Shown here in pieces: positions 538 to 21,561 of a DNA stretch of 21,561 nucleotides (its first letter is position 1; each line of letters starts with the position of its first letter). The position numbers and the translations under genes are program-made. Source of the DNA: DASVDK01 sp036381125 [NCBI: Thermodesulfobacteriota bacterium] (GTDB lineage: Bacteria; DASVDK01); NCBI GenBank assembly GCA_036381125.1, contig DASVDK010000188.1, positions 1-21,561 of the forward strand. Direction: 5' to 3'. The notes beneath the pieces are model-generated. The model worked only from the letters and a program-made list of their open reading frames with translations. It was not told the origin of the DNA and searched no databases.

Positions 538-837
538 TCAGGCCACGGCCCGGAGCGCGACGACCGCCGCGACCCCCACGGCGATCGTCGCGAGGAGCGG
601 CAGACGGGTCGCGGCGGCCGCGGTGACGAGGGCCGCCGCCGTTTCCGGCCAGCCGGTGGCCAGCGCGGTCGGGGCGATCACCGCCACGAGGACGGCCGGT
701 GGGATGGCGTCGAAGGCCGCCCTGGCCCGCCCTCGGAGGGCGAGCCGGCCAGCCACGAAGAGGCCCGCGATCCGGGTGAGGTAGGTCACGACCGCCATCG
801 CGACGATCGTCGCGAGCGTCGCGGGATCGACGCTCAT
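538..837 (-). CDS. azlD: AzlD-type branched-chain amino acid exporter small subunit
   Basis: This 99-residue, almost wholly hydrophobic protein has about three to four membrane spans. It carries the AzlD-like segment TYLTRIAGLF near residues 18-27 and the AFDAIPPAVL segment near 41-50. In the family, AzlD is the small partner of AzlC, and the pair exports branched-chain amino acids or analogues (azaleucine resistance). The length matches the family (about 100 aa). The ATG (835-837) overlaps the azlC stop by four bases, indicating translational coupling. It is the last gene of the minus-strand block; the tandem repeat at 473-520 begins 18 bases beyond its stop. Confidence 0.88.
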   Translation of the reverse strand: MSVDPATLATIVAMAVVTYLTRIAGLFVAGRLALRGRARAAFDAIPPAVLVAVIAPTALATGWPETAAALVTAAAATRLPLLATIAVGVAAVVALRAVA

Positions 838-1526
838 GCCGGCGCCTCGTCCGGCCCCGCGGCCCAGTAGGCGGCGGCGATCCCGGCGAAGGCGCCGGCC
901 GCCACGTGCCACGGCGGTCCGGCGGTGACGTGGGTCAGCGCCGAGGCTATGCCGCTCGCCGCGATCGTGAACCCCGTGACGCGGCCCCTCCAGAACGCCG
1001 CGACGAGCCCGATGAAGAGGGCCGTGAAGGCGAAGTCGGCGCCGAGCCGCGCGGGGTCGCCGAGGAACGAGCCGAGCCAGGCGCCGAGGACGGTCGAGCC
1101 GATCCAGGCCGGCGGCAGCATCATGGCCATCGGGAACCAGTACCCCGGCCTCACCGGCTGCGTCAGGGCGCGCCGCTCGGCGAGGGCCCACGACTCGTCG
1201 GTGAGGACGTAGAAGCCGACGAGCCGCTGGAGCCAGGAGAAGCCCTCCAGCTTCGGGGTCAGCGAGGCGCCCATCAGCACGTGGCGCGCGTTGATGAGGA
1301 GCGTCGAGAAGGCGAGCGCGAGGACCGGCACCGGATAGGTCCAGAGCTCCACGGCCGCGAACTGCGCCCCGCCGGCGAAGACCAGCACCGACATGAGCCC
1401 GGCCTCCGCGACGGACAGCCCCCTGGCCGCGCTCAGCGCGCCGAACAGGCCGCCGATGGGGATGGCGGCCACCACGACCGGCGCGATGTCGCGCAGGCCC
1501 TCGCGAGCCTCCGCGCGCCGGTTCAT
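834..1526 (-). CDS. azlC: AzlC-type branched-chain amino acid exporter large subunit
   Basis: A 230-residue integral membrane protein of the AzlC/YgaZ family, the large subunit of a two-part exporter for branched-chain amino acids. Family features are visible: PIGGLFGALSAARG (about 23-36), FAGGAQFAAVEL (50-61), INARHVLMGASL (78-89) and the DESWAL segment (110-115). The length is usual. The ATG at 1524-1526 overlaps the stop of the upstream AraC gene (ATGA), and its own stop overlaps azlD. The three genes therefore probably form one transcript. The actual substrate cannot be read from sequence. Confidence 0.9.
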   Translation of the reverse strand: MNRRAEAREGLRDIAPVVVAAIPIGGLFGALSAARGLSVAEAGLMSVLVFAGGAQFAAVELWTYPVPVLALAFSTLLINARHVLMGASLTPKLEGFSWLQRLVGFYVLTDESWALAERRALTQPVRPGYWFPMAMMLPPAWIGSTVLGAWLGSFLGDPARLGADFAFTALFIGLVAAFWRGRVTGFTIAASGIASALTHVTAGPPWHVAAGAFAGIAAAYWAAGPDEAPA

Positions 1527-2260
1527 CTCGAGACCGCCGCGCGGTAGGCCCCCGGCGTGACGCCGACGCGGGCCTTGAAGGCGCGGGTGAGATGCGCCTG
1601 GTCGCAGAACCCGGTGGCCGCGGCGACCTCGGCCGGGGAGTCCCCCCGCCGCAGCCGCGCCCTCGCGGCGCCGACCCGGCAGTTGACGAGATAGGCGTGC
1701 GGGGTGAGGCCCGGCTCGCGCCCCACGACCGCCGGGACGATGCGCGCATGCCTGACGAGGCAGTAGGCGTAGGCGCCGAGGAGCCGCTCGTCTGCCGCGA
1801 GCCCCTCCGCCCCCTCCTCCAGCATGCGGTGCGCGGCCGTGAGGAGCGCGACGCCCTGCGGATCGTGGACCACGGGCTCCGGGAAGAACGGGGTGCCGAC
1901 GGCGGCGCGTCCCGAGACCTCCGCCGCGATGCGCCCGAGCAGCGCGACCGTCGGATAGGTCGTGCGGTAGCTGTAGCCCTCGCCGTGCGGGGCGCCGTCG
2001 TGCACGTCCTCGGGGTTCGTGAAGATGAAGTCGCCCGGGCGCGCGTAGCGCCGGCGGCCGCGCACGGTCAGGCTCTCGCAACCGGCCGAGACCGCGCCGA
2101 TGACATAGGTGTCGTGCGTGTGCAGCGCGTACCGATGGCGACGGAAGGTCGCCGCCAGGCACTCGAGCCCGTCGAAGCGCTCGGCCGTGAAGAAGCGCGC
2201 CCGCTCGCCACTCGCGGGGGGCGCCATCGGCATGGCGTCGGCTCGCGTGATCGTCTCCAT
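1523..2260 (-). CDS. AraC-family regulator with a reduced DNA-binding domain
   Basis: A 245-residue protein with an N-terminal AraC-type cupin (about 25-100: HTHDTYVIGAVSAG, RPGDFIFTNPEDVHDG) and an AraC C-terminal helix-turn-helix (EVAAATGFCDQAHLTRAFK, about 211-229, then GVTPGAYR). Normal AraC DNA-binding domains hold two HTH units in about 100 residues. Here residues 171-185 run from the interdomain linker straight into the LTPHAYL linker helix, so the first HTH seems to be missing (about 35-45 residues). It is coupled by overlap to azlC and so probably controls the exporter. A likely leaderless promoter lies just upstream. ATG at 2258-2260 is preferred because of that -10 spacing. Confidence 0.85.
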   Translation of the reverse strand: METITRADAMPMAPPASGERARFFTAERFDGLECLAATFRRHRYALHTHDTYVIGAVSAGCESLTVRGRRRYARPGDFIFTNPEDVHDGAPHGEGYSYRTTYPTVALLGRIAAEVSGRAAVGTPFFPEPVVHDPQGVALLTAAHRMLEEGAEGLAADERLLGAYAYCLVRHARIVPAVVGREPGLTPHAYLVNCRVGAARARLRRGDSPAEVAAATGFCDQAHLTRAFKARVGVTPGAYRAAVSR

Positions 2261-2266
2261 CGGCCG

Positions 2267-2272
2267 AGTGTA
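2267..2272 (-). promoter_or_regulatory. -10 element of a probable leaderless araC promoter
   Basis: On the minus strand TACACT is followed by six bases and then the araC ATG. This matches the spacing of other TANACT-type -10 boxes in the window, so the transcript would begin at or next to the ATG. No convincing -35 is seen and no Shine-Dalgarno precedes the start. Confidence 0.5.
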
Positions 2273-2308
2273 GTCCTGCGCCAGGGTCGCCTGTCTCGAA
2301 GAAAAGTC

Positions 2309-3508
2309 TCAGCCGCGCTTCGGCTCCGGCAGGAAGCAGGCGGCCGCGAGGCCGAGGACCGGCGTGAGCGCCGCCGCCCAGAGGGCCGACGGCAGGCCGA
2401 AGCGGTCGGCCACCATGCCGAGCACCCACGCGCCGACGCCGCCGGCGCCGATCGCCAGGCCGACGATCAGCCCCGAGGCCATGCCGTGGTGGCGCGGCAG
2501 GTAGGCCTGCGCGAGGACCACCGAGGTCGTGAAGGTGGCCACCAGGACGAAGCCGAGGCCGGCCAGGAGCGCGAAGTGCACCCAGATCGGCATCGAGCGG
2601 GTGGCGAGGAGGAAGAGGACGGCCAGCGGCGTGCCGAGGGCGAACGCGCCGAGCATGAAGCGCCGCGCGCCGATCCGATCGGCGAGGACGCCGCCGACGA
2701 GCGTGCCGACCGCGCCGGCGCCGAGGAAGACCGAGAGCAGGGGCCCGGTGAGCCGCGGATCGGCCCCGAGGACGTCCCGGTAGTAGAAGGGGATGTAGGT
2801 CGTGAAGCCGAGCTGCGACCAGGAGCGGAACATGACCACGACGACCAGGAGCGTCATGGCGCCGATCAGCGTCGGCGCGACGCCGGCCGCCGCGGCGCGC
2901 TTCGTCGCAGCGGCCTGCCGCGCGAGGTAGGGCTGCACGGCGAAGAGCAGGGCGGCGACGAGGAGCGGGTGCACCGCCATGCCGAGCGAGCCGGCCGCCC
3001 CGTAGCGCGCCAGGAACAGGGCGATCAGGGCCGGCCCGAGGGCGATGCCGATGTTGCCGCCGACCGAGAACCAGGAGAGCCCCGTGGCCTTGTAGTCGCC
3101 CGCCACGCTGGCCGCGGTCTTGTACCCCTCGGGGTGGTAGGCCGCGATGCCGACGCCGGCCGCCACCGTCAGGGCGAGGACCGTCCAGTAGGACGGGGCG
3201 AGTCCGATCAGGGCGAAGCCGACGCCGGCCAGGAACACCGCCCAGGGCAGCAGCCACCGGCGGGCGCTCCGGTCCGAGAGGTACCCGAAGGCCGGCTGGA
3301 TGACCGACGAGGTCAGGTTCGAGATGAGGATGATCGCCCCGGCCGCCTCGTACGACAGGCCGTGCACATCGCGGAGCGTCGGCAGGATGGCCGGAAAGGC
3401 GCCCTGGATGCTGTCGACCGTGAGGTGGCCCACGGCGAGGAGGCCGAGCATCTTCGCGTTGGGCTTCACGCGCTCGCGCGGGAAGGCGGCTTCGGCGACG
3501 CTGCTCAC
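2309..3508 (-). CDS. Fosmidomycin-resistance (Fsr)-like MFS exporter
   Basis: A 399-residue, 12-span major facilitator. The N-terminal half closely follows the Fsr pattern: GHLTVDSIQGAFPAILP, GLSYEAAGAI, NLTSSVIQPAFGYLSDR, RRWLLP and YHPEG (the last inside the fourth-fifth span region). Fsr-type proteins export fosmidomycin and probably other small anionic compounds; the substrate here is not known. GTG at 3506-3508 is chosen because it overlaps the stop of the upstream EamA gene (GTGA) and gives the usual length. A longer in-frame reading upstream is the shadow of EamA. It ends 48 bases before araC, so it is probably the last gene of the gntR unit. Confidence 0.85.
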   Translation of the reverse strand: MSSVAEAAFPRERVKPNAKMLGLLAVGHLTVDSIQGAFPAILPTLRDVHGLSYEAAGAIILISNLTSSVIQPAFGYLSDRSARRWLLPWAVFLAGVGFALIGLAPSYWTVLALTVAAGVGIAAYHPEGYKTAASVAGDYKATGLSWFSVGGNIGIALGPALIALFLARYGAAGSLGMAVHPLLVAALLFAVQPYLARQAAATKRAAAAGVAPTLIGAMTLLVVVVMFRSWSQLGFTTYIPFYYRDVLGADPRLTGPLLSVFLGAGAVGTLVGGVLADRIGARRFMLGAFALGTPLAVLFLLATRSMPIWVHFALLAGLGFVLVATFTTSVVLAQAYLPRHHGMASGLIVGLAIGAGGVGAWVLGMVADRFGLPSALWAAALTPVLGLAAACFLPEPKRG

Positions 3509-4434
3509 GCTGCAGACCTCGCGCGGCCGACGAGCACGAGCGCGACGCCGGCCAGGATGACCATCATCGACACGATGGTCGTCCCGGTGATCCGCTCGCC
3601 GGCGACGAGCGCCCCGAGGGCGACCGCCACGACCGGATTCACGTAGGCGTAGCTCGTGGCCAGGGCGGGCCGCACGCGCCCCAGCAAGTAGATGTACGCG
3701 GTGTAGCCGACGAGCGAGCCTACCACGATCAGGTAGGCGAAGGCCCAGAGGGCCCGGGCCGACGGCCAGGCCGTCAGCCGCTCGCCGGCCGCGAGCCCGA
3801 GCAGGATCAGCGCCGCCCCTCCGACGAGGAGCTGGGCCGCCACCGCCATGAGGCCCGACGGCATCGACAGGTATCGGCTCCAGGCCGATCCGAAGGCCCA
3901 GCATACCGCGGCGAGCAGGAGGGCGACGGCCCCCACCGGGTGGGCCCGGAGATCGGCACCGGTGTTGAGCAGGACCACGCCGGCGAGGCCGAGGCCGAGC
4001 CCGACCCACTCCACCCGGCTCGGCCAGCGGCCGAAGAGGCCGGCGAAGAGGCCGGTCCAGATGGGGGTCGTGGCGATCACGACCGCCGCGACCCCCGAGG
4101 CGACCCACTGCTCGGCGAAGGCGACGCCGCCGTTGCCCCCGACGAGCAGGAACGTGCCGACGATGGCCGCTCCCCGCCACTCGGCCGCCGCGGGGGCCGG
4201 CGCGCCGCGCAGCCTGAGCAGCGGGTAGAGGAGGGCCCCCGCGACGACGAAGCGGATGCCGGACATGAGAAAGGGGGGGAACCCCTCGATCGCCAGGGCG
4301 ATGGCGAGGTAGGTCGAGCCCCAGATCACGTAGAGCAGCCCGAGCGCCGTGTAGACGCCGGCGGAGCGGTCGACGCGATCGGACGCCTCGACCGCGGCCT
4401 CTCCCTGGTACGCCGTCCTGCCGGTTACCGACAC
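3505..4434 (-). CDS. EamA-family (DMT) transporter
   Basis: A 309-residue drug/metabolite transporter with ten predicted spans in two EamA repeats. Family marks include the first-span YVIWGSTYLAIA, FxxxGIRFVVAG, and the second-repeat segment LATSYAYVNPVVAVALGALVAGE. Members export amino acids, nucleosides or small metabolites; the substrate is not deducible. There is no in-frame ATG near the N terminus. GTG 4432-4434 is the best start, lying inside the last codons of the upstream 86-residue gene (10-base overlap), which implies coupling. The stop overlaps the GTG of the MFS gene. The start could be a few codons off. Confidence 0.82.
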   Translation of the reverse strand: MSVTGRTAYQGEAAVEASDRVDRSAGVYTALGLLYVIWGSTYLAIALAIEGFPPFLMSGIRFVVAGALLYPLLRLRGAPAPAAAEWRGAAIVGTFLLVGGNGGVAFAEQWVASGVAAVVIATTPIWTGLFAGLFGRWPSRVEWVGLGLGLAGVVLLNTGADLRAHPVGAVALLLAAVCWAFGSAWSRYLSMPSGLMAVAAQLLVGGAALILLGLAAGERLTAWPSARALWAFAYLIVVGSLVGYTAYIYLLGRVRPALATSYAYVNPVVAVALGALVAGERITGTTIVSMMVILAGVALVLVGRARSAA

Positions 4435-5680: not shown

Positions 5681-5721
5681 GGGTGCGAGGGCTCCTGATT
5701 GTCTGGTGTCTATATCCACAA

Positions 5722-5759
5722 TGTACAATTACACTATACACATGAGGTAGGCGTGTCAA
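5722..5759 (-). promoter_or_regulatory. gntR promoter overlapped by a palindromic operator
   Basis: On the minus strand TTGACA (5754-5759) is followed, after exactly 17 bases, by TAGTGT (5731-5736). Across the -10 lies an imperfect palindrome (5722-5740) with TGTA and TACA outer arms and AT-rich centre, like operators of YtrA/GntR regulators. The arrangement predicts autorepression. The same DNA contains the 5' end of the divergent DUF1285-like gene, so both could be controlled together. Confidence 0.65.
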
Positions 5760-6241
5760 GAGACTTTCCGGTGAGCCCGTTCGGGCCGAAGATCGCCATC
5801 GACCCGGACGGCGTCTGGCTGGTGGACGGCGACCCGGTCGTTCACCCGACCGTCCTGGCCGAGCTGGTCGGGCGCCTGGCCCGCCGGCCGGACGGGACCC
5901 ACGTCATCCGCGCCGGCGGCGGCGAGGTTGCCATCGACGTGGCGGAGGCGCCCTTCGTGGTCCGAACGCTCGAGGTGGAACGAGGGGCCGACGGTCGCAT
6001 CGCCCGGCTCGATGCGCGGCTGAGCGACGGCACCGAGGAGGTGATCGATCCCGGGTCGCTGCGACGCCTGGCCGCTCCGGCGGCCGGACCGGACGGCGCC
6101 CGCTTTGCCTGCAGCGTGAAGGGGGGGCGTTTCGAGGCCCGGCTTTCCCGCTTCGCAACCTACCGCCTCCTCGCCGAGGCCGAGCCGACCGACGACGGCC
6201 GCGCCAGGCTCGAGACGACGCGCGGAACGGTGGTCCTCTAG
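5753..6241 (+). CDS. DUF1285-like protein
   Basis: A 162-residue soluble protein. The N-terminal IDPDGVWLVDGDPVVHPTV (about 14-32), the VAIDVAEAPFVVRTLEV segment (about 60-76) and the C-terminal FEARLSRFATYRLLAEA (about 123-139) followed by G-T-V-V-L match, by eye, the DUF1285 pattern (DGxWxxxGxPI, a V-D-APFVV strand, ARLxRxxYYELVE, short hydrophobic end). DUF1285 proteins have no settled function. GTG 5753-5755 is chosen because GAGGTAGG lies just before it; a longer reading would begin upstream of the operator. It is divergent from gntR and shares its control region. No obvious partner follows. Confidence 0.6.
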   Translation: MSRDFPVSPFGPKIAIDPDGVWLVDGDPVVHPTVLAELVGRLARRPDGTHVIRAGGGEVAIDVAEAPFVVRTLEVERGADGRIARLDARLSDGTEEVIDPGSLRRLAAPAAGPDGARFACSVKGGRFEARLSRFATYRLLAEAEPTDDGRARLETTRGTVVL

Positions 6242-10789: not shown

Positions 10790-11410
10790 ATGTCCAAGGC
10801 CGCAGCGTCCGACTCGTACGACCTCTTCGATCTCGCCGACCTGCCCGACGACAACCCGGACGACGACGACAGCCTCGACCTCGAGGCCTACCTGGACCTC
10901 GAGGAGAGCCCGGAGATCACCCGGCTCATGCAGGAGATGCGCGCCGGCGGGGCGAGGGCGCCCGCCGAGCCGGTCGCCGCCGCGCGGCCCGCACCGCCCG
11001 AGCCTCGACGGCTCGCCGCGACGCGCGGCGCGGCGAGCGACGCCCGGCCCGCACCCGAGGCGACGCCGGCCCCCGCGGTCGCGCCGGTCGACCGCGACCG
11101 CGCGTACCGCGAGGCGAGGCGTCCCGACCTCGCCGCGGTGGCCCGCGCCCTCGGCCAGGTGAGCGTGCAGGCACGGCAGCTCGTCGTCGCCTGCCCGCGG
11201 TGTGACGGCCGCGCCTCCATCGTCGTCTACGCCGACCGCTTCAAGTGCTTCGGCTGCAGCGCCACGGGCGACGAGCGCGCCCTCGCGGCGCACCTCACGG
11301 GATGGGACTCGCGCCGTGTCGCGGCGTGGCTCGAGGCTGCGGCGGTCCGACCGGAGGTCGACGACACCGAGGTCCGCCGTCCCTGGCGCCTCTCGTTCTT
11401 CGCGCGCTAG
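10790..11410 (+). CDS. Stand-alone primase-type (CHC2-like) zinc-ribbon protein
   Basis: 206 residues. Residues 9-40 are extremely acidic (runs of Asp), and about 52-105 are Ala/Pro-rich linker. The C-terminal module has C135-x2-C138, then YADRFKCFGCSATGD with C153-x2-C156 and an LAAHLTGWD helix. This strongly resembles the CHC2 zinc ribbon of DnaG primase (CxxH...YHCFGCGxGGD), with Cys in place of the usual His. There is no TOPRIM or primase core, so it is not a primase. Likely a DNA/RNA-binding or regulatory derivative; role unknown. Start ATG 10790 with AAGGAG 12 bases upstream is rather far. Two hairpins follow the stop. Confidence 0.65.
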   Translation: MSKAAASDSYDLFDLADLPDDNPDDDDSLDLEAYLDLEESPEITRLMQEMRAGGARAPAEPVAAARPAPPEPRRLAATRGAASDARPAPEATPAPAVAPVDRDRAYREARRPDLAAVARALGQVSVQARQLVVACPRCDGRASIVVYADRFKCFGCSATGDERALAAHLTGWDSRRVAAWLEAAAVRPEVDDTEVRRPWRLSFFAR

Positions 11411-13759: not shown

Positions 13760-13975
13760 GAGTCAGGAGGGGGACTCCGCGCCGTCTCTCATCGACGCTC
13801 CGCCCCCCTCCTGACAAGTCGTCAGCAGGCGCAGCGACTCGCGCCGCGAGAGCGGCGCAACCTCCCCATTCTCTCGATCGCTCCGGGCGGAGTGAATCCG
13901 CCCTCCGCTCCAGAAGCACTCGGTCGGTCACCGGGTCGCCCGGTCCCGAGAGGAGGCCGGCTAGGCGCCTCTCGG
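13759..13975. repeat. Run of five consecutive perfect hairpins between convergent genes
   Basis: In order: a 12-bp stem 13762-13773/13804-13815 (arms GTCAGGAGGGGG and its complement); a 7-bp stem with GAGA tetraloop (13841-13858); a 7-bp stem with GTGAA loop (13885-13903); a 6-bp stem ACCGGG-TCG-CCCGGT (13930-13944); and an 8-bp stem CCGAGAGG/CCTCTCGG (13946-13975) covering the stop of the minus-strand gene. The first stem has rivals: GGAGTC/GACTCC (13759-13764/13773-13778) and CTGAC/GTCAG (13811-13815/13821-13825). No T-tracts. It probably acts as a bidirectional terminator; a structured RNA is possible. Confidence 0.55.
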
Positions 13976-15634
13976 AATGGGGGGCGGCACGACCAGCCGC
14001 GGCTCCTCGGCCGCGCGCCGGCGCGCCTGGGCGGCGATGAGCGCCACGTGCTTCTGGATCAGGGCGATCACGAAGGGGTGGCGCGACGCCTTCGGTCCGA
14101 GCGGCGAGAGACCCCGCGCCGCGGCGAGGGCGCTCTTCGCATCCTCCTCGCGCCCCAACCGGTCGAGGTAGTCGGCCTGCGCCTCGAGGCGCCGGCGATA
14201 GCGGTCGCGCATGGCGGCGTCGAACACCCGGTCCGCGAAGGTGTCGAAGATCTGCTGGAACCGCTCCCGGCGCTGCTCCTCCCCCACGATGAGCGGACTC
14301 CTGGCCGCGTCGTCCAGCTCCTCGACGAGCGGCCGGATCGTCTCCTCGGGCAGCAGCCAGCTCGCGAACTCCGGGAGCCGGTGCAGCTCCACCGACCGCG
14401 CGAGGCGGGCCTCGATCTCCGCCGTGTCCATGCCGCCGTCGAGGCCGCGCCGGGCCAGGATGGGGGCCTCGGGCGGCTCCGCGGACGCGGCTGCGGACGC
14501 CCCCTCGCCGAGGAGGAGCGGGCGGGCGGTGCTGTACGCGGACGGCAGCGGCGCCAGGCGCGCCGCCTCGGCGCCGGCGGTCTCGGGCGCGAGCTGCCGT
14601 CTCGCCGCGTGCTCGACGAGGGCGAGCGCGTAGGCCGGCTCCACCGGCACGAGCGGGAAGCCCTCGGCCTGCTCGGCCTCCCGCGCGCGCTCGCGCAGCG
14701 TCCGCCGCGAGGTCTCCGATGCCTGGAAGTGGACGAGGCCCCGCTCGTCGTTGACGATGGCCTGGAAGAGATAGAGCGCGCCCCGCCGGTTGCCGGCCAG
14801 CCAGACGAGCCGGTCGCCGACGCCGTCGATCGCCGACGCCCACGCCTGGTCCGGCTCGATCTCGCGCACCGGGCGGAAGCGCGGCCCCTCGTCCTCGCGC
14901 CGCGGCGCCTCGGGCACCGCGATGCCCCGGGTCTTGAGGAGGAACAGGCCGCGCCGCAGCGCCTTCTCGACCGCGCCGCTCGGCCGCAGGTCGCCGAGCC
15001 AGGCGGCGAGGAAGAGGCCCACGGCCGGCTCGGCCCGCCTGACGAGCGCGTCGACGAGCGTGAGGTCGAGCGCCTCGTGGCGGCCCCGGAGCCGCTCGAG
15101 CGGCGGCAGCGGGCGGGGGAGCGCCTGGGGGAACCTGGCGAAGAAGGCCTCCACGGTGTCGGCGGCGAGCCGTCCCGGGAGGGCGGCCACGCGGTCCGTC
15201 CACTCCTCGCCCCCCTCGTCGGCCAGCTCGGCCGGCGATGCGGCCGCGAGGCGATTGGCTTCCTCCACCGGACCGGCGAGCGGCGCCGCGGCCTCGGGGT
15301 CGAGCGCGGCGGCGGCGGCGACGGCGGCCCGCTTCACCGACGGGTCGGCCGCGGCGTCGCGCACGAAGGCGACGAGCGGCGCGGCGAAGGCCGGCTCGCC
15401 GAGCCGCCCGACGCCCTCGATGAGCGCGAGGCGCGCCTCGCCGCGCTCCCGCTCGAGCCGGCGGGCGATCGCGTCGGCGATCAGCTCGCGGTGGCGCTTG
15501 AGGTCGACGGCGAGCCGCCCCTCGAACGGCGCCCGGGGGTCGTGGCGGCGCGCCTCGAGCGCGGCGTCGAGGAGTTCGGCCGCGCGCTCGCGCGCCGCCT
15601 TGCTGTCGCGTGACGGCGGCCTGACCTTGGCCAT
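13961..15634 (-). CDS. 557-aa protein of unknown function, partly helical-repeat-like
   Basis: A soluble, Ala/Arg/Glu/Leu-rich protein. Residues about 40-160 (repeated LIADAIARRL, ALIEGVGRLGEPAFAAPLVAFV, DPSVKRAAVAAAAAL) look like HEAT-type helical repeats. A middle part (about 205-340) includes LFLLKTRGIAVPEAP and a strand-rich YLFQAIVNDERGLVHFQ segment. The C-terminal third is helical (FADRVFDAAMRDRYRRRLEAQADYL) and ends in PPPIPRGA. No catalytic motif or family is recognised. The ATG lies four bases after the DUF2203 stop with no Shine-Dalgarno, implying coupling. Coding bias and length make it a confident gene; it may be a scaffold. Confidence 0.8.
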   Translation of the reverse strand: MAKVRPPSRDSKAARERAAELLDAALEARRHDPRAPFEGRLAVDLKRHRELIADAIARRLERERGEARLALIEGVGRLGEPAFAAPLVAFVRDAAADPSVKRAAVAAAAALDPEAAAPLAGPVEEANRLAAASPAELADEGGEEWTDRVAALPGRLAADTVEAFFARFPQALPRPLPPLERLRGRHEALDLTLVDALVRRAEPAVGLFLAAWLGDLRPSGAVEKALRRGLFLLKTRGIAVPEAPRREDEGPRFRPVREIEPDQAWASAIDGVGDRLVWLAGNRRGALYLFQAIVNDERGLVHFQASETSRRTLRERAREAEQAEGFPLVPVEPAYALALVEHAARRQLAPETAGAEAARLAPLPSAYSTARPLLLGEGASAAASAEPPEAPILARRGLDGGMDTAEIEARLARSVELHRLPEFASWLLPEETIRPLVEELDDAARSPLIVGEEQRRERFQQIFDTFADRVFDAAMRDRYRRRLEAQADYLDRLGREEDAKSALAAARGLSPLGPKASRHPFVIALIQKHVALIAAQARRRAAEEPRLVVPPPIPRGA

Positions 15635-16172: not shown

Positions 16173-17180
16173 ATGCGATCCCCCCTGACCGTGCTCCTCG
16201 GCGATCGGCTCGTCGCCGGTCAGGCTTCCCGTCTCGCCGCGGAGCTCGGCGACCCGTTCCGGGTCGTCGTGCCCGACGGGGAGGGGGCGTTCACGCCGGA
16301 CGGCCTCGTCCCGTTCGCCGCGCAGGCGGACGTGATCGTGGCGACCGGGCTCGCGTCCCCCACGATCGAGGCGGCGCGGCGCTGCCGCCTGGTCCAGTCG
16401 TGGATCGCCGGCGTGGATCGCTTCGACCTCGAGGCGATGGCCCGGGCCGGGCTGGTGCTGTCGGCCGCGCACGGCAACGCGGTGGCCGTCGCCGAGCACG
16501 CGCTCGGCCTCGTGCTCGCCCTCGGCCGCCACATCGTGCGCGGCGATCGGGCCCTGCGCCGCGGCGACTGGTCGGTCGGCTTTGCCGCCGGGGCCCCCCC
16601 GCACGCCGGCGTGAGCGGCCGCACGGTCACGGTCGTCGGGTACGGCAGCATCGGTCGGGCCTTCGGCCGCCTCGCGGCCGGCTTCGGCTTCCGGCTGATC
16701 GGCGTCCGGCGGCACCCGGAGCGCTCCGGAGCGGACGGGGGGCCCGTGACCATCGTCGGCCTCGACCGGCTCGACTGGGCGCTCGGCCAGGCGGACGTCG
16801 TCGTCCTCGCCCTGCCGAAGACGCGCGAGACGGTGGGGCTGATCGACGCCCGGCGGCTGGCCGCGATGCGACGCGACGCCTGGCTCGTGCAGGTGGGCCG
16901 CTCGGAGACGGTGGACGAGGCGGCGCTCTTCGAGGCCTGCCGGGACCGCCGCATCGCCGGCGCCGGCCTCGACGTCTGGTGGCGCTATCCACCCCCGCAC
17001 CCGAGGCTCCCCGCCCGATTCCCGTTCCACGAGCTGGACAACGTGGTCCTCACGCCGCACTCGTCCGGGTGGACCGTCGAAGGGCTCGAGGCCCAGATGG
17101 CGTTCGTGGTCGACAACCTGCGGCGCTTCGCCCGGGGCGAGCCGATCGAGGGGGTCGTGGACCTCGAGCTCGGGTACTAG
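16173..17180 (+). CDS. D-isomer-specific 2-hydroxyacid dehydrogenase
   Basis: 335 residues in the usual catalytic-NAD-catalytic layout. NAD-binding GYGSIG lies at 156-161. The substrate-binding/catalytic Arg is in VQVGRSETVDEAAL (R243) and the catalytic His in LTPHSSGW (H296). The Glu that normally partners the His after the GLDV motif (DVFxxEP) is not at its expected place: the sequence reads GLDVWWRYPPP (265-275). This may mark a subfamily with another acid or altered activity. Probably NAD(P)-dependent reduction or oxidation of a 2-keto/2-hydroxy acid; substrate unknown. Fragment of a second copy follows. Confidence 0.88.
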   Translation: MRSPLTVLLGDRLVAGQASRLAAELGDPFRVVVPDGEGAFTPDGLVPFAAQADVIVATGLASPTIEAARRCRLVQSWIAGVDRFDLEAMARAGLVLSAAHGNAVAVAEHALGLVLALGRHIVRGDRALRRGDWSVGFAAGAPPHAGVSGRTVTVVGYGSIGRAFGRLAAGFGFRLIGVRRHPERSGADGGPVTIVGLDRLDWALGQADVVVLALPKTRETVGLIDARRLAAMRRDAWLVQVGRSETVDEAALFEACRDRRIAGAGLDVWWRYPPPHPRLPARFPFHELDNVVLTPHSSGWTVEGLEAQMAFVVDNLRRFARGEPIEGVVDLELGY

Positions 17181-17196: not shown

Positions 17197-17295
17197 GGCG
17201 GCGCGGCCGTCGACGTCCTCGTCGACAACCTCTTCGCCCGCTGGCGCGCAGGCGAGCCCTGGCGCAACCTCGGCGATCCGGCGCGCGGCTACTGA
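17197..17295 (+). pseudogene. C-terminal remnant of a second 2-hydroxyacid dehydrogenase
   Basis: In a different frame from the intact gene, this stretch reads ...VDVLVDNLFARWRAGEPW, then RNLGDPARGY and a TGA. It aligns with the intact C terminus (FVVDNLRRFARGEP ... VDLELGY). No start codon or NAD domain precedes it. It is best explained as the tail of a decayed paralogue or a recombination scar, with the intact gene's tail upstream. Confidence 0.6.
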
Positions 17296-17310: not shown

Positions 17311-17339
17311 TTGACACAGGTCACACCCGCGCCTAGCCT
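17311..17339 (+). promoter_or_regulatory. Strong promoter TTGACA-N17-TAGCCT
   Basis: A perfect -35 (17311-17316), exactly 17 bases, and TAGCCT (17334-17339). The predicted +1 near 17346 leaves about 108 bases of leader before the first formamidase gene. TGAC-ACAG-GTCA (17312-17323) is a small palindrome over the -35. Confidence 0.75.
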
Positions 17340-17360
17340 CGTTCCTATCCCGTGAGCGGT

Positions 17361-17446
17361 GCGCCGCCGTGCAACAGGGCGGCGCTCGCGACGCGTGCCC
17401 CGTACACCGCCGCCCGTCCCTCCGACGCATCGCCACGAACGGAGGG
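17361..17446 (+). promoter_or_regulatory. Two-hairpin leader that hides the Shine-Dalgarno
   Basis: GCGCCGCC (17361-17368) pairs perfectly with GGCGGCGC (17378-17385) across a 9-base loop. CCCTCCG (17418-17424) pairs perfectly with CGGAGGG (17440-17446), and the latter contains the Shine-Dalgarno of the gene starting at 17454. The second stem would block ribosome entry. No known riboswitch class is recognised. A GTG at 17352, near the predicted +1 and in frame with the gene, is an alternative near-leaderless start adding 34 residues. Confidence 0.5.
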
Positions 17447-17453
17447 TCCCCCT

Positions 17454-18716
17454 ATGGCGACAGTGCCTGAAACGCGGTTCGGCGAGGCGGTCGGCCGCGC
17501 CCGCGTGCGCAAGCCGGGGCCGATGGACTTCCGCACCTCGGGCGTCTCGCGCTTCGAGGACCGCGACCTCGGCGTCCCCAGGTTCCGGTGTGAGGTGGGC
17601 GTTCCGCTCGCGCAGCAGGCTCACCTCGGCCACAACCGGTGGCACCCGGACATCCCGCCCCTCATCGAGCTCTCGCCGGGCGAGGAGGTAATCCTCGAGA
17701 CGCCCGGCTACGACGACTACCAGCTCAAGGACAACGACGCGCGAACCGACATCGATTCGCTCGACCTGTCGCGCGTCCATCCTCTCGCCGGCCCGGTGGC
17801 GGTCAAGGGGGCGGAGCCGGGCGACCTCCTCGTCGTGGACCTCCTGGCCATCGAGCCGCTCTCCGGCATCGGCTACTCCTGCGTGCTCCCCGGCATGGGC
17901 GGCATCCTGCGCGAGCAGTTCCCGAAGGGCTTCAAGTCGGTCTGGGACTGCCGGGGCGTGTACGCGACCTCGCGGCACGTGCCCGGCGTGCGGATCCCTG
18001 CCATCCCGCACCCCGGGGTCATCGGCGTGGCGCCGTCCCACGAGATGCTGAAGCGATGGAACGAGCGGGAGGACCCGCTCGTGTCCCAGGAGAAGGCCGC
18101 GCCTCGCGTCGCGGAGACGGCCGTCCTGCGGATGCAGCGCGGGGCGGACAGCTCGCGGCGCAGCAGCATAGCGGCCGAGGCGGCCCGCACCGTCCCTCCG
18201 CGTGAGAACGGCGGCAACGTGGACATCAAGAACCTCTCGACCGGGTCGCGGCTCTACTTCCCCGTCTTCGTCGAGGGGGCGCTCCTCTCGCTCGGCGATC
18301 TCCACTTCGCCGAGGGAGATGGCGAGGTCACCTGGAACGCGATCGAGATGGACGGCGTCACCTGGCTGCGCACCAACCTCGTGAAGGGCGCTGCCAAGAA
18401 GTTCAACGTGAAGACCCCGATCTTCGAGCCCGGCCCGGTGGAGCCGCGCTTCTCCCGCTGGCTCACTTTCACCGGCATCAACGTGCACGACAACACGCAG
18501 GGTTACCTCGACTGCACCATGGCTGCGAAGGAGGCGCTGATGCAGGCGATCGACTACCTCGGGAAGTTCGGCTTCTCGGGGGAGCAGGCGTACACGATCC
18601 TGAGCGTCGCGCCCATGGAGATGCGGATCAGCTCCATGGTCGACATCCCGAATGCCTGCGTGACCGTCTCCCTCCCGCGCGACATCTTCGAGAAGGACAT
18701 CCTGCCCGCCGCATGA
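17454..18716 (+). CDS. Acetamidase/formamidase (FmdA/AmdA) paralogue
   Basis: 420 residues. The family hydrolyses short amides to acid and ammonia. Shared blocks: HNRWHPDIP (60-68), AVKGAEPGDLLVVDLL (116-131), WDCRGVYATSRH (164-175), TVPPRENGGNVDIKNLS (246-262), YFPVFVEGALLSLGDLHFAEGDGE (268-291), EPGPVEPRFSRWLTF and MVDIPNACVTVSLP. Compared with the second copy it has about 38 extra N-terminal residues and lacks two Cys: Val256 replaces C225 of NCDIKNL, and Asn295 stands where the other has FCGAIEM. Substrate preference may therefore differ. ATG 17454 follows GGAGGG by seven bases. A 16-bp hairpin follows the stop. Confidence 0.85.
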   Translation: MATVPETRFGEAVGRARVRKPGPMDFRTSGVSRFEDRDLGVPRFRCEVGVPLAQQAHLGHNRWHPDIPPLIELSPGEEVILETPGYDDYQLKDNDARTDIDSLDLSRVHPLAGPVAVKGAEPGDLLVVDLLAIEPLSGIGYSCVLPGMGGILREQFPKGFKSVWDCRGVYATSRHVPGVRIPAIPHPGVIGVAPSHEMLKRWNEREDPLVSQEKAAPRVAETAVLRMQRGADSSRRSSIAAEAARTVPPRENGGNVDIKNLSTGSRLYFPVFVEGALLSLGDLHFAEGDGEVTWNAIEMDGVTWLRTNLVKGAAKKFNVKTPIFEPGPVEPRFSRWLTFTGINVHDNTQGYLDCTMAAKEALMQAIDYLGKFGFSGEQAYTILSVAPMEMRISSMVDIPNACVTVSLPRDIFEKDILPAA

Positions 18717-18729
18717 CCGGCGCGCAGCC

Positions 18730-18768
18730 GGCAGGCGTGCGGCGCCGCCGCTGCGTCGCGCGCCTGCC
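18730..18768 (+). terminator. 16-bp terminator hairpin after the first amidase gene
   Basis: Bases 18730-18745 pair with 18753-18768 over 16 consecutive positions (14 Watson-Crick, 2 G-U), leaving a 7-base loop. It begins 13 bases after the stop codon and is followed by a pyrimidine-rich ACGCTTCTCGCGTCTTCC. It is the strongest terminator candidate in the window. Confidence 0.7.
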
Positions 18769-18886
18769 ACGCTTCTCGCGTCTTCCCGCGCGCCATGCGG
18801 CCCGAGGCCTCGACCAGGCCGCCTGGCTCCCCCGCCGCGCGACCGCGCGTGGACGTGACCGCCTCGGGCGCAGGGTCGATCGTCAC

Positions 18887-18934
18887 TTGACCCCCCTTCC
18901 GGGCGGGTGTAGCGTGAGACTACCTCAGAGCTAC
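18887..18934 (+). promoter_or_regulatory. Promoter TTGACC-N17-TAGCGT with an operator-like palindrome
   Basis: TTGACC (18887-18892), 17 bases, TAGCGT (18910-18915); +1 near 18922. A palindrome covers the -10 and the start point: GTAGC (18909-18913) with GCTAC (18930-18934), and TGAG (18915-18918) with CTCA (18924-18927). A repressor bound here would block the amiS-fmdA-fmdB unit. As RNA only the downstream half would be transcribed, so it is more likely a DNA site. Confidence 0.65.
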
Positions 18935-19079
18935 AAGGTCGCGCCGTGGGCCTGGCTGGTGTCATCGGTCTCGCCCTCGAAGGTTCCGTTCCCTCCGTAC
19001 CGTGGCCGAGGGTCGAGGCGCACCGCTCCTTCCGCACCGTCCTCCGACGTTCCGCTCGCCCGTACCCGGCAACGCCGAA

Positions 19080-19120
19080 CAGGCGCCGCGTAGTCCGACC
19101 GAACGGACAGTCGGCGCCTG
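19080..19120 (+). promoter_or_regulatory. Leader hairpin with ACCGAA hexaloop
   Basis: The outer stem CAGGCGCCG (19080-19088) pairs with CGGCGCCTG (19112-19120), and the inner stem GTCCG (19093-19097) with CGGAC (19104-19108). The closing loop is ACCGAA. A six-base loop with A at 1 and G at 4 matches the loop rule for RNA targets of ANTAR antiterminators such as AmiR of amidase operons. A second neighbouring hexaloop stem, normally needed, was not found. Confidence 0.4.
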
Positions 19121-19155
19121 CGGGTCCTGCCGCCCGCCGTGGCCTCGACCAGACA

Positions 19156-19185
19156 TCCCCCCCGCGTCGCCGCCGATCGGGGGGA
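19156..19185 (+). promoter_or_regulatory. C-run/G-run stem touching the amiS Shine-Dalgarno
   Basis: TCCCCCC (19156-19162) pairs with GGGGGGA (19179-19185). The Shine-Dalgarno AAGGAGGGG (19185-19193) starts at the last paired base, and the C-run could pair with it instead. The ATG follows at 19199. Confidence 0.45.
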
Positions 19186-19198
19186 AGGAGGGGTCATC

Positions 19199-19711
19199 AT
19201 GCTAGGTCTCGTCCTGCTCTACGTGGGGGCCGTCCTCTTCCTCAACGGCCTCTGGCTCCTGGGCCGCATCGGCGACCGCGAGATCGCCGTCATCAACGTC
19301 TTCACCGGTGGCCTCACGCTCCTCGTCGCGCTCTACCTCGCGTTCGGCCCGGGATCGAGCCCGGAGTCGATCCTGGCCGCGGCCCAGGTCCTGCTCTTCT
19401 CGTTCACGTACTTCTGGGTGGCGATCAACCGTTACAACGGCGCCGACGGGCGTGGGCTCGGCTGGTACTGCCTCTTCGTGGCACTCACCGCTGCGCCGAT
19501 CGCGTACACCACGCTTGCCGGTGCGACCTCCGTGTTGGGCGTCTGGCTCGGCCTGAACTGGGCCGCGTGGGCCGTGCTCTGGTTCCTCTTCTTCCTGCTC
19601 CTCGCCCTCAAGAAGCCGATCCTCCGGGTGACGGGCGCCATTACGGCCGTCGAGGGGGTCCTTACCGCGTGGCTGCCCGGCTACCTGCTCCTCACGGGGG
19701 TCCTGCGCTGA
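19199..19711 (+). CDS. amiS: AmiS/UreI-family amide/urea channel
   Basis: 170 residues with six predicted membrane spans. It opens with LGLVLLYVGAVLFLNGLWLLG, close to the start of Helicobacter UreI. Further family marks are INVFTGGL, FSFTYFWVAINRYNG, GWYCLFVALTAAP, WAAWAVLWFLFFLLLALKKP and VEGVLTAWLPGYLL (150-164). UreI is a proton-gated urea channel; AmiS is the amide-uptake relative in amidase operons. The His-rich periplasmic loop used by UreI for acid gating is absent, so it is more AmiS-like. It probably admits formamide or other short amides for the amidase encoded 45 bases downstream. AAGGAGGGG precedes the ATG. Confidence 0.88.
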   Translation: MLGLVLLYVGAVLFLNGLWLLGRIGDREIAVINVFTGGLTLLVALYLAFGPGSSPESILAAAQVLLFSFTYFWVAINRYNGADGRGLGWYCLFVALTAAPIAYTTLAGATSVLGVWLGLNWAAWAVLWFLFFLLLALKKPILRVTGAITAVEGVLTAWLPGYLLLTGVLR

Positions 19712-19724
19712 CCAACGCGTTCGG

Positions 19725-19741
19725 ACCGGCGCCGCGCCGGT
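19725..19741 (+). promoter_or_regulatory. Short stem-loop two bases before the fmdA Shine-Dalgarno
   Basis: ACCGGCG-CCG-CGCCGGT is a perfect 7-bp stem with a triloop in the amiS-fmdA gap. The Shine-Dalgarno AAAGGAG begins at 19744. It may protect or set the level of the downstream message. Confidence 0.4.
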
Positions 19742-19756
19742 GGAAAGGAGACGTAC

Positions 19757-20977
19757 ATGCCTGAGAGCCTGATCAAGGTCGACGTCCGGAAGGCGCCGGC
19801 CGAGCAGCCGATGCCGCTGCACAACCGCTGGCACCCCGACATCCCGGCCGTGGTGGACGTGAAGCCGGGGTCCGTCTTCCGCGTGGAGTGCCTCGACTGG
19901 ACGGGCGGACAGATCGGCAACAACGACAGCGCCAATGACGTCCGCGACGTCCAGCTCACCCAGGTCCACTACCTGAGCGGGCCGATCGCCGTCGACGGGG
20001 CCGAGCCGGGCGACATCCTCGTCGTCGACCTGCTCGACCTCGGGACCCTGCCCGCGTCGGAGTGGGGTTTCACCGGCATCTTTGCCAAGGAGAACGGCGG
20101 CGGCTTCCTGACCGACCATTACCCGCAAGCGAGGAAGGCGATCTGGGACTGCCAGGGGATCTACACGACGAGCCGACACATCCAGAACGTCCGGTTCGCG
20201 GGGCTCACGCATCCCGGCCTCATCGGCTGCGCCCCTTCGGCCGACCTGCTCGCCACCTGGAACAAGCGAGAGCGCGAGCTGATCGAGACGAACCCGAATC
20301 GGGTCCCGCCCCTCGCGGCGCCGCCCAACCCGGAGAAGGCCATGCTCGGCAAGCTCTCCGGGGCGCAGGCGGAGCGGGCCGCGAAGGAGGCGGCACGCAC
20401 CGTCCCGCCGCGCGAGCATGGCGGCAACTGCGACATCAAGAACCTCTCGCGCGGGTCGCGGATCTACTTCCCCGTGTACGTGAAGGGCGCCAACCTCTCG
20501 ATGGGCGACATGCACTTCTCGCAGGGAGACGGCGAGATCTCCTTCTGTGGCGCCATCGAGATGGCCGGCTTCCTCGACCTGCACGTCGACCTCATCAAGG
20601 GCGGCGTGGCCAAGTACGGGATGGTCAACCCCATCTTCAAGCCGGGGCCGGTCGAGCCGCGCTACTCCGAGTTCCTCGTCTTCGAGGGGATCTCGGTCGA
20701 CGAGCAGGGGAAGCAGTACTACCTCGACGCGCACGTCTCGTACCGGCGGGCCTGCCTCAACGCCATCGAGTACCTGAAGAAGTGGGGCTACACCGGCGAG
20801 CAGGCGTACCTGCTCCTGTCGTGCGCGCCGGCCGAGGGGCGCATCAGCGGCATCGTCGACATCCCGAACGCCTGCGCGACGCTCGCGATCCCGACCGAGA
20901 TCTTCGACTTCGACATCCGGCCGAGCGCTCAGGGGCCCCGGCAGGTGGACCGCGGGCGGGAGGCGTCGACGACGTAG
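19757..20977 (+). CDS. fmdA: Formamidase FmdA
   Basis: 406 residues, the length of FmdA from methylotrophs. Formamidase hydrolyses formamide to formate and ammonium in the cytoplasm. Blocks: HNRWHPDIP (22-30), GAEPGDILVVDLLDLG, IWDCQGIYTTSRHI (129-142), VPPREHGGNCDIKNLSRGSR, YFPVYVKGANLSMGDMHFSQGDGE, ISFCGAIEMAG (261-271), FKPGPVEPRYSEFLVFEG and GIVDIPNACATLAIP. It keeps both Cys (225 and 264) missing from the upstream paralogue, so it is the better formamidase candidate. AAAGGAG precedes the ATG. It lies in one unit with amiS and fmdB, the usual fmd context. Confidence 0.9.
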   Translation: MPESLIKVDVRKAPAEQPMPLHNRWHPDIPAVVDVKPGSVFRVECLDWTGGQIGNNDSANDVRDVQLTQVHYLSGPIAVDGAEPGDILVVDLLDLGTLPASEWGFTGIFAKENGGGFLTDHYPQARKAIWDCQGIYTTSRHIQNVRFAGLTHPGLIGCAPSADLLATWNKRERELIETNPNRVPPLAAPPNPEKAMLGKLSGAQAERAAKEAARTVPPREHGGNCDIKNLSRGSRIYFPVYVKGANLSMGDMHFSQGDGEISFCGAIEMAGFLDLHVDLIKGGVAKYGMVNPIFKPGPVEPRYSEFLVFEGISVDEQGKQYYLDAHVSYRRACLNAIEYLKKWGYTGEQAYLLLSCAPAEGRISGIVDIPNACATLAIPTEIFDFDIRPSAQGPRQVDRGREASTT

Positions 20978-20988
20978 CGTCGCGGCGG

Positions 20989-21014
20989 GGGGACGGCCCC
21001 GGCGGGCCGTCCCC
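20989..21014 (+). promoter_or_regulatory. Perfect 11-bp hairpin between fmdA and fmdB
   Basis: GGGGACGGCCC-CGGC-GGGCCGTCCCC lies 12 bases after the fmdA stop, one base before the fmdB Shine-Dalgarno GAGGGAGG. There is no T-tract, so read-through is likely; it may attenuate transcription or stabilise the fmdA message. Confidence 0.55.
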
Positions 21015-21027
21015 AGAGGGAGGCCAC

Positions 21028-21303
21028 ATGCCGCTCTACGAGTTCCACTGCGGGGCCTGCGGCCCCTTCGACGCCTGGCGCACCCTGGCGGAGGCGGGCG
21101 CCCCCATGGCCTGTCCCGCCTGCGGCGGCGATGCCGAGCGCCGCTTCTCGCCGCCGATCCTCGGTCTGCCGAGCCCCCGGACGCAGCGGCGGATCGAGCA
21201 GGCGACGGCGCCCCGGCTCGTGAGTCGGGCGCGATCCGAGGCGCCGCCGAAGGGCCCCACGTCCCGATCGGTGAGAGGGCGCCCCTGGCAGATCTCCGGC
21301 TGA
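21028..21303 (+). CDS. fmdB: FmdB-family zinc-ribbon protein
   Basis: 91 residues. Begins MPLYEFHCGACGPFDAWRTL and continues MACPACGGDAERRFSPPIL, giving the two CxxC pairs (C8/C11, C29/C32) of the FmdB putative regulatory family, a single zinc ribbon followed by a basic, disordered tail (about 50-91). In Methylophilus fmdB accompanies fmdA and was proposed to regulate formamidase expression; the molecular role is unsettled. GAGGGAGG lies four bases before the ATG. Third gene of the amiS-fmdA-fmdB unit. Confidence 0.88.
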   Translation: MPLYEFHCGACGPFDAWRTLAEAGAPMACPACGGDAERRFSPPILGLPSPRTQRRIEQATAPRLVSRARSEAPPKGPTSRSVRGRPWQISG

Positions 21304-21342
21304 GTTTGCTTATATAGTAGGCGTAGCTGCTGCCGCACGCGT

Positions 21343-21361
21343 GGCCGGCGCGGCGCCGGCC
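21343..21361 (+). promoter_or_regulatory. 19-bp perfect palindrome abutting a Shine-Dalgarno
   Basis: GGCCGGCGC, a central G, then GCGCCGGCC. As RNA it can form a 7-bp stem with a 5-base loop. GGGAGG follows without a gap (21362-21367). Upstream is an AT-rich TATATAGT (21311-21318), possibly a -10 for the last gene, but no good -35 is present. Confidence 0.45.
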
Positions 21362-21375
21362 GGGAGGTCTGCCAC

Positions 21376-21561
21376 CTGGTCATCGACGACCTCAGGCGTC
21401 TGCAGGCGGCCCACGGCTATCTCCCGCGGGCCGCGCTCGAGGCCCTGTCGGCCGAGCGGCGGGTACCGCTCGACGAGCTGTACGGCGTCGCGTCCTTCTA
21501 TCCCCACTTCCGCTTCGCGCCTCGCGAAGGCCCCGAGATCACCGTCTGCCGCGACCTGCCC
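21376..21561 (+). CDS. NuoE/FdsG-type thioredoxin-like [2Fe-2S] subunit, 5' part
   Basis: Open at the window end. The 62 codons seen give VIDDLRRLQAAHGYLP, AALEALSAERRVPLDELYGVASFYPHFRF and GPEITVCRDLP, the N-terminal part of the 24-kDa NuoE / formate dehydrogenase gamma (FdsG) family. The Cys of VCRDLP is the first [2Fe-2S] ligand. After a formamidase operon an NAD-linked formate dehydrogenase gamma subunit is attractive, but NuoE or a hydrogenase subunit cannot be excluded. No ATG, GTG or TTG is in frame after the fmdB stop. CTG 21376, eight bases after GGGAGG, is the most likely start; otherwise the 5' end is frameshifted. Confidence 0.75.
   Translation, partial: MVIDDLRRLQAAHGYLPRAALEALSAERRVPLDELYGVASFYPHFRFAPREGPEITVCRDLP

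What the first reader, a model, noticed from the sequence alone, without database searches (positions are those of the whole stretch)
17311..21561. Compact amide-to-formate module: two FmdA paralogues, AmiS channel, FmdB and a NuoE/FdsG-type subunit
Seen: two FmdA-family genes flank an AmiS/UreI-like channel, followed by fmdB and the start of a NuoE/FdsG subunit. Known: FmdA makes formate and ammonia from formamide; FdsG belongs to NAD-linked formate dehydrogenases. Inferred: the locus imports short amides, takes nitrogen as ammonium and electrons as NADH from formate. The two amidases may split the substrate range, since one lacks two Cys kept in the other and has an N-terminal extension.
Basis: partly seen in the sequence, partly recalled or inferred. 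Interest (0 to 1): 0.7.

Follow-up and report, generated by a model that had tools for sequence, protein, structure and literature searches.

The report
Amide-scavenging gene cluster, cut off
This stretch encodes an amide channel, a formamide-splitting type of enzyme, an unusual relative of that enzyme and a small helper protein, a known way for bacteria to get nitrogen from simple amides; the idea that a formate-oxidising enzyme follows cannot be checked because the sequence stops there.

Summary
In detail: two PF03069 (FmdA/AmdA) genes flank an AmiS/UreI channel gene, followed by fmdB and the start of a NuoE-type frame. The amide part is ordinary. Of 63 related FmdA loci, 56 have FmdB and 27 AmiS within 1.5 kb; three genomes of the order Mycobacteriales carry AmiS, two FmdA genes and FmdB together. 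FmdA2 passes NCBI's formamidase cut-off; FmdA1 does not. FmdA1 belongs to a separate, well-supported clade seen on Rhodococcus plasmids and in one more genome, with 21 fixed differences, among them loss of a Cys kept in 89 of 89 other rows; its substrate is unknown. The formate dehydrogenase link is not shown: the window ends 86 codons into the frame, which has no usual start codon, and no NuoE-NuoF gene lies near FmdA in 63 loci. The fragment looks like the N-terminus of a NuoE-NuoF fusion. Twelve of 14 relatives' loci that I read have an FdhA-like match, but the best-scoring one has cytochromes and an MtrB/PioB porin instead, so the downstream content is open. Best reading: amide nitrogen scavenging with a divergent second amidase.

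The parts
17311..17339 (+). possible promoter of fmdA1, by eye: TTGACA, 17 nt, TAGCCT
   Evidence: read; the consensus scan, which asks for at least 4 of 6 matches in each hexamer, reported none in the region, so weak
17454..18716 (+). FmdA1, divergent FmdA/AmdA-family amidase, 420 aa, with N-terminal extension
   Evidence: PF03069 466 bits; NF045496 formamidase 441 bits, below its cut-off of 500; own clade; AlphaFold model best matched by 2wkn, TM 0.84
18717..19198 (+). 482-bp stretch without a convincing gene; by eye TTGACC, 17 nt, TAGCGT at 18887-18915
   Evidence: the two + strand ORFs of at least 80 aa that reach into it lack the codon-position GC pattern of genes; promoter scan negative
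19199..19711 (+). AmiS/UreI-family channel, 170 aa
   Evidence: PF02293 208 bits; matches H. pylori urea channel 6nsj (5.6e-24) and 3ux4 (1.1e-23)
19757..20977 (+). FmdA2, formamidase-type FmdA, 406 aa
   Evidence: NF045496 730 bits, above its cut-off of 500; 2wkn E 5.8e-187; 74 and 73% identity to L001 and L002
21028..21303 (+). FmdB-family zinc-ribbon protein, 91 aa
   Evidence: TIGR02605 54.5 bits and PF09723 50.3 bits
21304..21561 (+). 5' part of a NuoE-type [2Fe-2S] gene, probably a NuoE-NuoF fusion, cut by the window end; start codon not found in frame
   Evidence: PF01257; the two best matches in 376 genomes are N-termini of NuoE-NuoF fusions

Best explanation
An amide nitrogen-scavenging cluster. 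AmiS lets short neutral amides (formamide and the like) cross the membrane. FmdA2 hydrolyses them to ammonia and a carboxylate (formate from formamide). FmdB, a small zinc-ribbon protein often found beside fmdA, probably regulates or assists. FmdA1, which may be transcribed on its own, is a second hydrolase of the same fold with an altered set of otherwise conserved residues, so it probably takes a different amide or lactam. The NuoE-type gene is the start of the next gene, most likely a NuoE-NuoF fusion that passes electrons to or from NADH; a working link to formate is possible but not shown. Shown: gene identities, families, clades, recurring neighbourhoods. Inferred: substrates, direction of flow, FmdB role, transcription units.
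For: Families with curated cut-offs. FmdB lies within 1.5 kb of the FmdA2-like gene in 56 of 63 loci, AmiS in 27 of 63, both in 24 of 63. AmiS, two FmdA genes in tandem and FmdB-like matches lie together in three genomes (G871: L198/L231; G924: L199; G970: L210) of 249 searched in the order of G031. FmdA1 keeps the family core: 82 columns have at most one exception over 93 rows, and the model fits 2wkn. FmdA1 clade support 99/95. Published: msmeg_4367 formamidase 3.67-fold and msmeg_4368 FmdB-family 3.11-fold up under nitrogen limitation (PMC4617892, passages); disruption of one of three amd/fmd genes in a haloarchaeon abolished growth on acetamide, while growth on formamide only lagged (PMC5052560, passages).
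Against: No functional data for any of these genes. FmdA1's relatives (L097, L098, L099, L221) share no gene with the window other than FmdA, so its place beside AmiS may be chance. 2wkn is titled a gamma-lactamase and formamidase, so a 'formamidase' label in this family does not prove a substrate. The window's transcription units rest on gaps and by-eye boxes that the scan did not report.
Confidence: 0.78

Rival explanations
1. The reader's module: amide in, formate and ammonium out, formate oxidised to CO2 by an NAD-linked formate dehydrogenase whose FdsG/NuoE part starts at 21304.
For: 12 of 14 loci read around relatives of the fragment have an FdhA-like match; nine align over 600 residues or more (L089, L090, L091, L100, L185, L186, L188, L189, L190), three only in part (L092, L093, L230). 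Six share a MobA-AOR-FdhA-NuoEF-MoeA module, and the FdhA-like protein of L100 passes the Fdh-alpha cut-off (774 over 666 bits). In L092, L093, L186, L190 and L230 the FdhA-like match follows the NuoF match, the order the window would need. PDB sequence matches include formate dehydrogenase gamma subunits from rank 4 on. Formamidase plus formate dehydrogenase is a known metabolic pair (PMC10781810, passages).
Against: In 63 FmdA loci no NuoE hit and no NuoE-NuoF hit; three have a distant FdhA-like match 5-9 kb off. In the six modules FdhA lies directly 5' of NuoEF, whereas in the window that place holds fmdB. The best-scoring relative has no FdhA-like match. Downstream sequence is not held.
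Confidence: 0.33
2. The NuoE-NuoF gene starts a separate electron-transfer locus, e.g. NADH to membrane cytochromes and an outer-membrane porin-cytochrome complex, unrelated to the amidases.
For: Best-scoring match (60.8 bits, 51% over 61 aa) is a NuoE-NuoF fusion on a 6.6-kb contig with cytochrome c7-type, multiheme CXXCH and MtrB/PioB genes and a gene without a Pfam match that reads like a membrane cytochrome. There too NuoEF comes first on its strand.
Against: One example of 14 loci read. None of the other 26 genomes of that order matches the fragment at 1e-8, though nine of them do so between 1e-6 and 1e-8; the contig may be mis-binned. The comparison rests on about 60 residues.
Confidence: 0.25
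3. The fragment is the start of a complex I (nuo) or hydrogenase operon.
For: It matches PF01257 and, weakly, NuoE, HoxE and formate dehydrogenase gamma models of NCBIfam, all far below cut-off; the best three PDB sequence matches are NfnC and hydrogenase subunits. The third-best genome hit (G064, 153 aa) is a separate NuoE-type protein.
Against: Most separate NuoE-type hits read TFY[AS]QF at the place where the window reads SFYPHF; S-F-[YF]-P-H-F-R occurs in six long frames (L144, L100, L078, L079, L156, L228) and in one short one (L179, 262 aa). The two best-scoring hits in 376 genomes are fusions.
Confidence: 0.15
4. FmdA1 is a decayed or inactive copy.
For: Below the formamidase cut-off; loses a Cys otherwise kept in 89 of 89 rows.
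Against: Intact 420-aa frame with strong codon-position GC, conserved core, relatives at 65-67% identity that share the changes, model fits 2wkn.
Confidence: 0.07

Closest known systems
FmdA formamidase/acetamidase clusters with AmiS and FmdB (AmiS in Actinomycetota loci; FmdA-FmdB also in Pseudomonadota)
   Same: FmdA, AmiS and FmdB as close neighbours; two FmdA genes with AmiS and FmdB in L231, L199 and L210
   Different: the second FmdA here is from another clade, lies upstream of amiS and may be its own unit
Acetamidase/formamidase family protein on Rhodococcus plasmids (WP_206003409.1, WP_248690967.1)
   Same: 66.5-66.8% identity to FmdA1 over 95% of it, most of the N-terminal extension included
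   Different: no AmiS, FmdA2 or FmdB match in the plasmid stretches L097, L098 and L099 other than the FmdA1-type gene itself
NuoE-NuoF fusion of the MobA-AOR-FdhA-NuoEF-MoeA module (L089, L090, L100, L185, L188, L189)
   Same: N-terminal NuoE domain 41-49% identical to the fragment over 60-69 aa
   Different: FdhA is 5' of NuoEF there; in the window fmdB is
H. pylori urea channel UreI (3ux4, 6nsj)
   Same: same family; two stretches, window residues 1-44 and 60-165, align, with a Trp-rich stretch in common
   Different: the aligned loop with His in UreI is shorter, and the window protein has no His; that this loop serves acid gating is recalled

Membership tests
FmdA_AmdA (PF03069) | match over the gathering score | tested here: met
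   FmdA1 466 and FmdA2 632 bits, cut-off 27
Formamidase FmdA, NCBI equivalog NF045496 | score over 500 bits: FmdA2 | tested here: met
   730 bits
Formamidase FmdA, NCBI equivalog NF045496 | score over 500 bits: FmdA1 | tested here: not met
   441 bits; separate clade
Formamidase (EC 3.5.1.49) | hydrolysis of formamide | not testable with these tools
   needs an assay; 2wkn is titled gamma-lactamase
AmiS/UreI channel (PF02293) | match over the gathering score | tested here: met
   208 bits, cut-off 25
FmdB zinc-ribbon family (TIGR02605) | match over cut-off | tested here: met
   54.5 bits, cut-off 31.3
NuoE / FdsG / HoxE (NCBIfam equivalogs) | score over each cut-off | tested here: inconclusive
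   34.2, 32.1 and 31.7 bits against 141, 198 and 224; only about 60 residues of the domain are present
NuoE-NuoF fusion | NuoF domain after the NuoE domain | not testable with these tools
   window ends; relatives have it
NAD-linked formate dehydrogenase module | FdhA/FdsA catalytic subunit in the same locus | not testable with these tools
   none among the 21 window proteins scanned with Pfam in a right frame; downstream not held

The most novel reading that the evidence does not exclude
The FmdA1 clade is a separate amidase type with its own substrate, kept beside AmiS and a formamidase, and the following NuoE-NuoF gene opens an electron-transfer chain (formate dehydrogenase or cytochromes) that uses the formate, so the locus would turn one amide into ammonium plus usable electrons.
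Probability: 0.1. Interest if true: 0.5.

Novelty: new member of a known kind. Interest (0 to 1): 0.2.

Why it matters
If FmdA1 has a different substrate, the cluster would show how one amide channel serves two enzymes, and the clade (also on plasmids of Rhodococcus, some from nitrile-contaminated soil) would be worth a substrate screen. The formate coupling, if real, would make amides a source of both nitrogen and electrons. As it stands the locus is an ordinary nitrogen-scavenging cluster.

Tried and rejected
Own genome: not held, so the sequence beyond 21561 was not seen. The one genome-contig scan returned 63 loci; in none did the comparison find the window's set with both FmdA kinds and a NuoE gene. 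Viral contigs with FmdA1 gave one partial relative. Plasmids with the NuoE fragment gave two weak hits. No tRNA or Rfam hit. The sigma-70 scan found no promoter; the two by-eye boxes are only noted.

His-to-Asn in HGGN as a sign of a dead or special enzyme: rejected, since 47 of 93 rows have Asn there and 46 His (counted). Loss of Cys225 as special: rejected (32 of 93 have Cys). FmdA1 neighbours as a clue to substrate (2-oxo or 2-hydroxy acid genes): dropped; the window shares no gene but FmdA with L097, L098, L099 or L221, although L099 and L221 share an E2-type match of 77 aa; the first comparison missed genes by its GC filter and was repeated without it. Host phylum: not established; 73.4% GC and the tree do not tell.

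Rows dropped before counts: one search extracted 167 frames of at least 330 aa and kept 91 after removing identical cores and frames without a P..(x)GGN(x)D motif; five frames of a third subfamily without that motif were added back by hand for the tree (98 rows with the two window proteins). The 14 loci are my choice among the higher-scoring hits, not all of them. Literature: (formamidase, FmdA, AmiS together) found 0 papers; other searches were made; I read passages only of PMC10781810, PMC4617892, PMC5052560 and PMC4222082, and saw the rest as listings.
Full report
What is there. The window's right end holds five frames on the + strand: FmdA1 17454-18716, AmiS 19199-19711, FmdA2 19757-20977, FmdB 21028-21303 and an open NuoE-type frame to 21561. 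Pfam gives FmdA_AmdA for both amidases (466 and 632 bits), AmiS_UreI (208 bits), a zinc ribbon for FmdB and 2Fe-2S_thioredx. NCBI's formamidase equivalog scores FmdA2 at 730 bits, over the cut-off of 500, and FmdA1 at 441, under it. A CTG at 21376 stands behind GGAGG, and a GTG at 21341 lies in the neighbouring frame; which, if either, is used cannot be told.

The amide part is a known kind. A scan of genome contigs with FmdA2 returned 63 loci at 60-74% identity. In those, FmdB lies within 1.5 kb of the FmdA2-like gene in 56 of 63, AmiS in 27 of 63 and both in 24 of 63; a NuoE hit (E 0.01) lies in 0 of 63, a NuoE-NuoF hit (E 1e-5) in 0 of 63, and a distant FdhA-like match in 3 of 63 (L027, L031, L058), 5-9 kb from FmdA. 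Flanks reach at most 10 kb on each side, and 11 of the 63 loci are shorter than 21 kb in all. The loci were chosen by FmdA2 similarity, so the counts describe that set only. Two FmdA genes in one cluster are not new either: in G871, G924 and G970, three of 249 genomes searched in the order of G031 (Mycolicibacterium agri, Mycobacteriales), AmiS, two FmdA genes in tandem and FmdB-like matches lie together (L231, L199, L210). In the sample of the phylum of G030, L130 and L131 have an FmdA2-like gene, FmdB and a third-type FmdA within about 4 kb.

FmdA1. A maximum-likelihood tree of 98 rows places FmdA1 with two Rhodococcus plasmid proteins and one from G999 (99/95 support), apart from the 89 rows that hold FmdA2. 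tblastn against plasmids found 1028 records with a match; seven, all Rhodococcus, are 66.5-66.8% identical and the other 1021 below 60%. In 249 genomes of the order of G031 one (G999) has a 66% match, the others listed at most 51%; in 296 genomes of the phylum of G030 no listed match exceeds 53%. At 21 columns conserved to 95% or more in the other 89 rows the four clade members share another state (a gap in six), among them the places of Trp48, Trp103, Phe109, Gln256, Phe263 and Cys264 of FmdA2. The family core remains (82 columns with at most one exception over 93 rows). An AlphaFold model from 28 sequences (mean pLDDT 78.7, residues 1-31 unreliable) matches 2wkn first, TM 0.84, 45% identity. 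2wkn is named formamidase in the sequence table and gamma-lactamase from Delftia acidovorans in the structure table, a warning that the family label does not fix the substrate. A different substrate for FmdA1 is my inference; the neighbourhoods of its relatives share only FmdA with the window.

AmiS. It aligns with the H. pylori urea channel over two stretches, residues 1-44 and 60-165. The shorter loop and the absence of His in the window protein suggest a channel without acid gating; the role of that loop in UreI is recalled, not from a call.

The NuoE-type end. Of 376 genomes of the phylum of G057, 378 of the phylum of G010 and 194 of the phylum of G002, 55, 20 and 2 have a match at the limits set (1e-6, 1e-6, 1e-8). 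The two best-scoring hits are N-termini of NuoE-NuoF fusions, G223 (60.8 bits) and G225 (53.2 bits); the third, G064 (46.6 bits), is a separate 153-aa protein. I read 14 loci around chosen hits. FdhA-like matches are in 12, over 600 aligned residues or more in nine. Six (L089, L090, L100, L185, L188, L189) share the order MobA-AOR-FdhA-NuoEF-MoeA; the FdhA-like protein of L100 passes the formate dehydrogenase alpha cut-off. There FdhA stands 5' of NuoEF, where the window has fmdB; in L092, L093, L186, L190 and L230 the FdhA-like match follows NuoF, which would fit the window. L187 and L184 have none. L184, the best-scoring relative, carries multiheme cytochromes and an MtrB/PioB porin; no other of the 27 genomes of that order matches at 1e-8, so it may be mis-binned. 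The fragment therefore most likely begins a NADH-module gene; an FdhA-type partner is the commonest among the loci read, but it is not shown here.

Mechanism. Most likely: AmiS admits short amides, FmdA2 hydrolyses formamide-like ones, ammonium feeds biosynthesis, FmdA1 takes another amide. An FmdA and an FmdB gene rise together under nitrogen limitation in M. smegmatis (msmeg_4367 and msmeg_4368; PMC4617892, passages). In Halorubrum lacusprofundi disruption of one of three amd/fmd genes stops growth on acetamide, while growth on formamide only lags, a precedent for divided substrates (PMC5052560, passages).

Verdict. Observation confirmed; amide reading supported; formate dehydrogenase coupling unproven (0.33); novelty is a new member of a known kind with a moderately interesting divergent second amidase. 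Interest 0.2.

Noticed in passing
window 21304-21400: NuoE-type frame without ATG, GTG or TTG; GTG 21341 in the next frame and CTG 21376 behind GGAGG are candidates, a one-base frameshift in the GC-rich stretch is possible.
   Followed up: partly
window 17199-17295: After the D-2-hydroxyacid dehydrogenase (16233-17180, PF02826) a short frame reads by eye like the C-terminus of a second such enzyme; Pfam finds nothing in the 48 aa given. Possibly a gene remnant.
   Followed up: partly
window 538-4425, - strand: AzlD, AzlC, an AraC-type regulator, an MFS transporter and an EamA transporter in a row.
   Followed up: no
window 5699-6241, 10790-11410 and 13961-15634: Three frames with coding-like third-position GC but no Pfam match.
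   Followed up: no
L089, L090, L100, L185, L188, L189: Conserved module MobA-AOR-FdhA-NuoEF-MoeA: an aldehyde ferredoxin oxidoreductase beside a formate dehydrogenase-like protein and an NADH module.
   Followed up: partly
L184 1-6591: NuoE-NuoF fusion beside multiheme cytochromes and an MtrB/PioB porin on a 6.6-kb contig in G223; perhaps mis-binned.
   Followed up: partly
L130 and L131, also L141-L143: A third FmdA subfamily with AGN in place of GGN, about 43% identical to FmdA1, near FmdA2 and FmdB in L130 and L131.
   Followed up: partly
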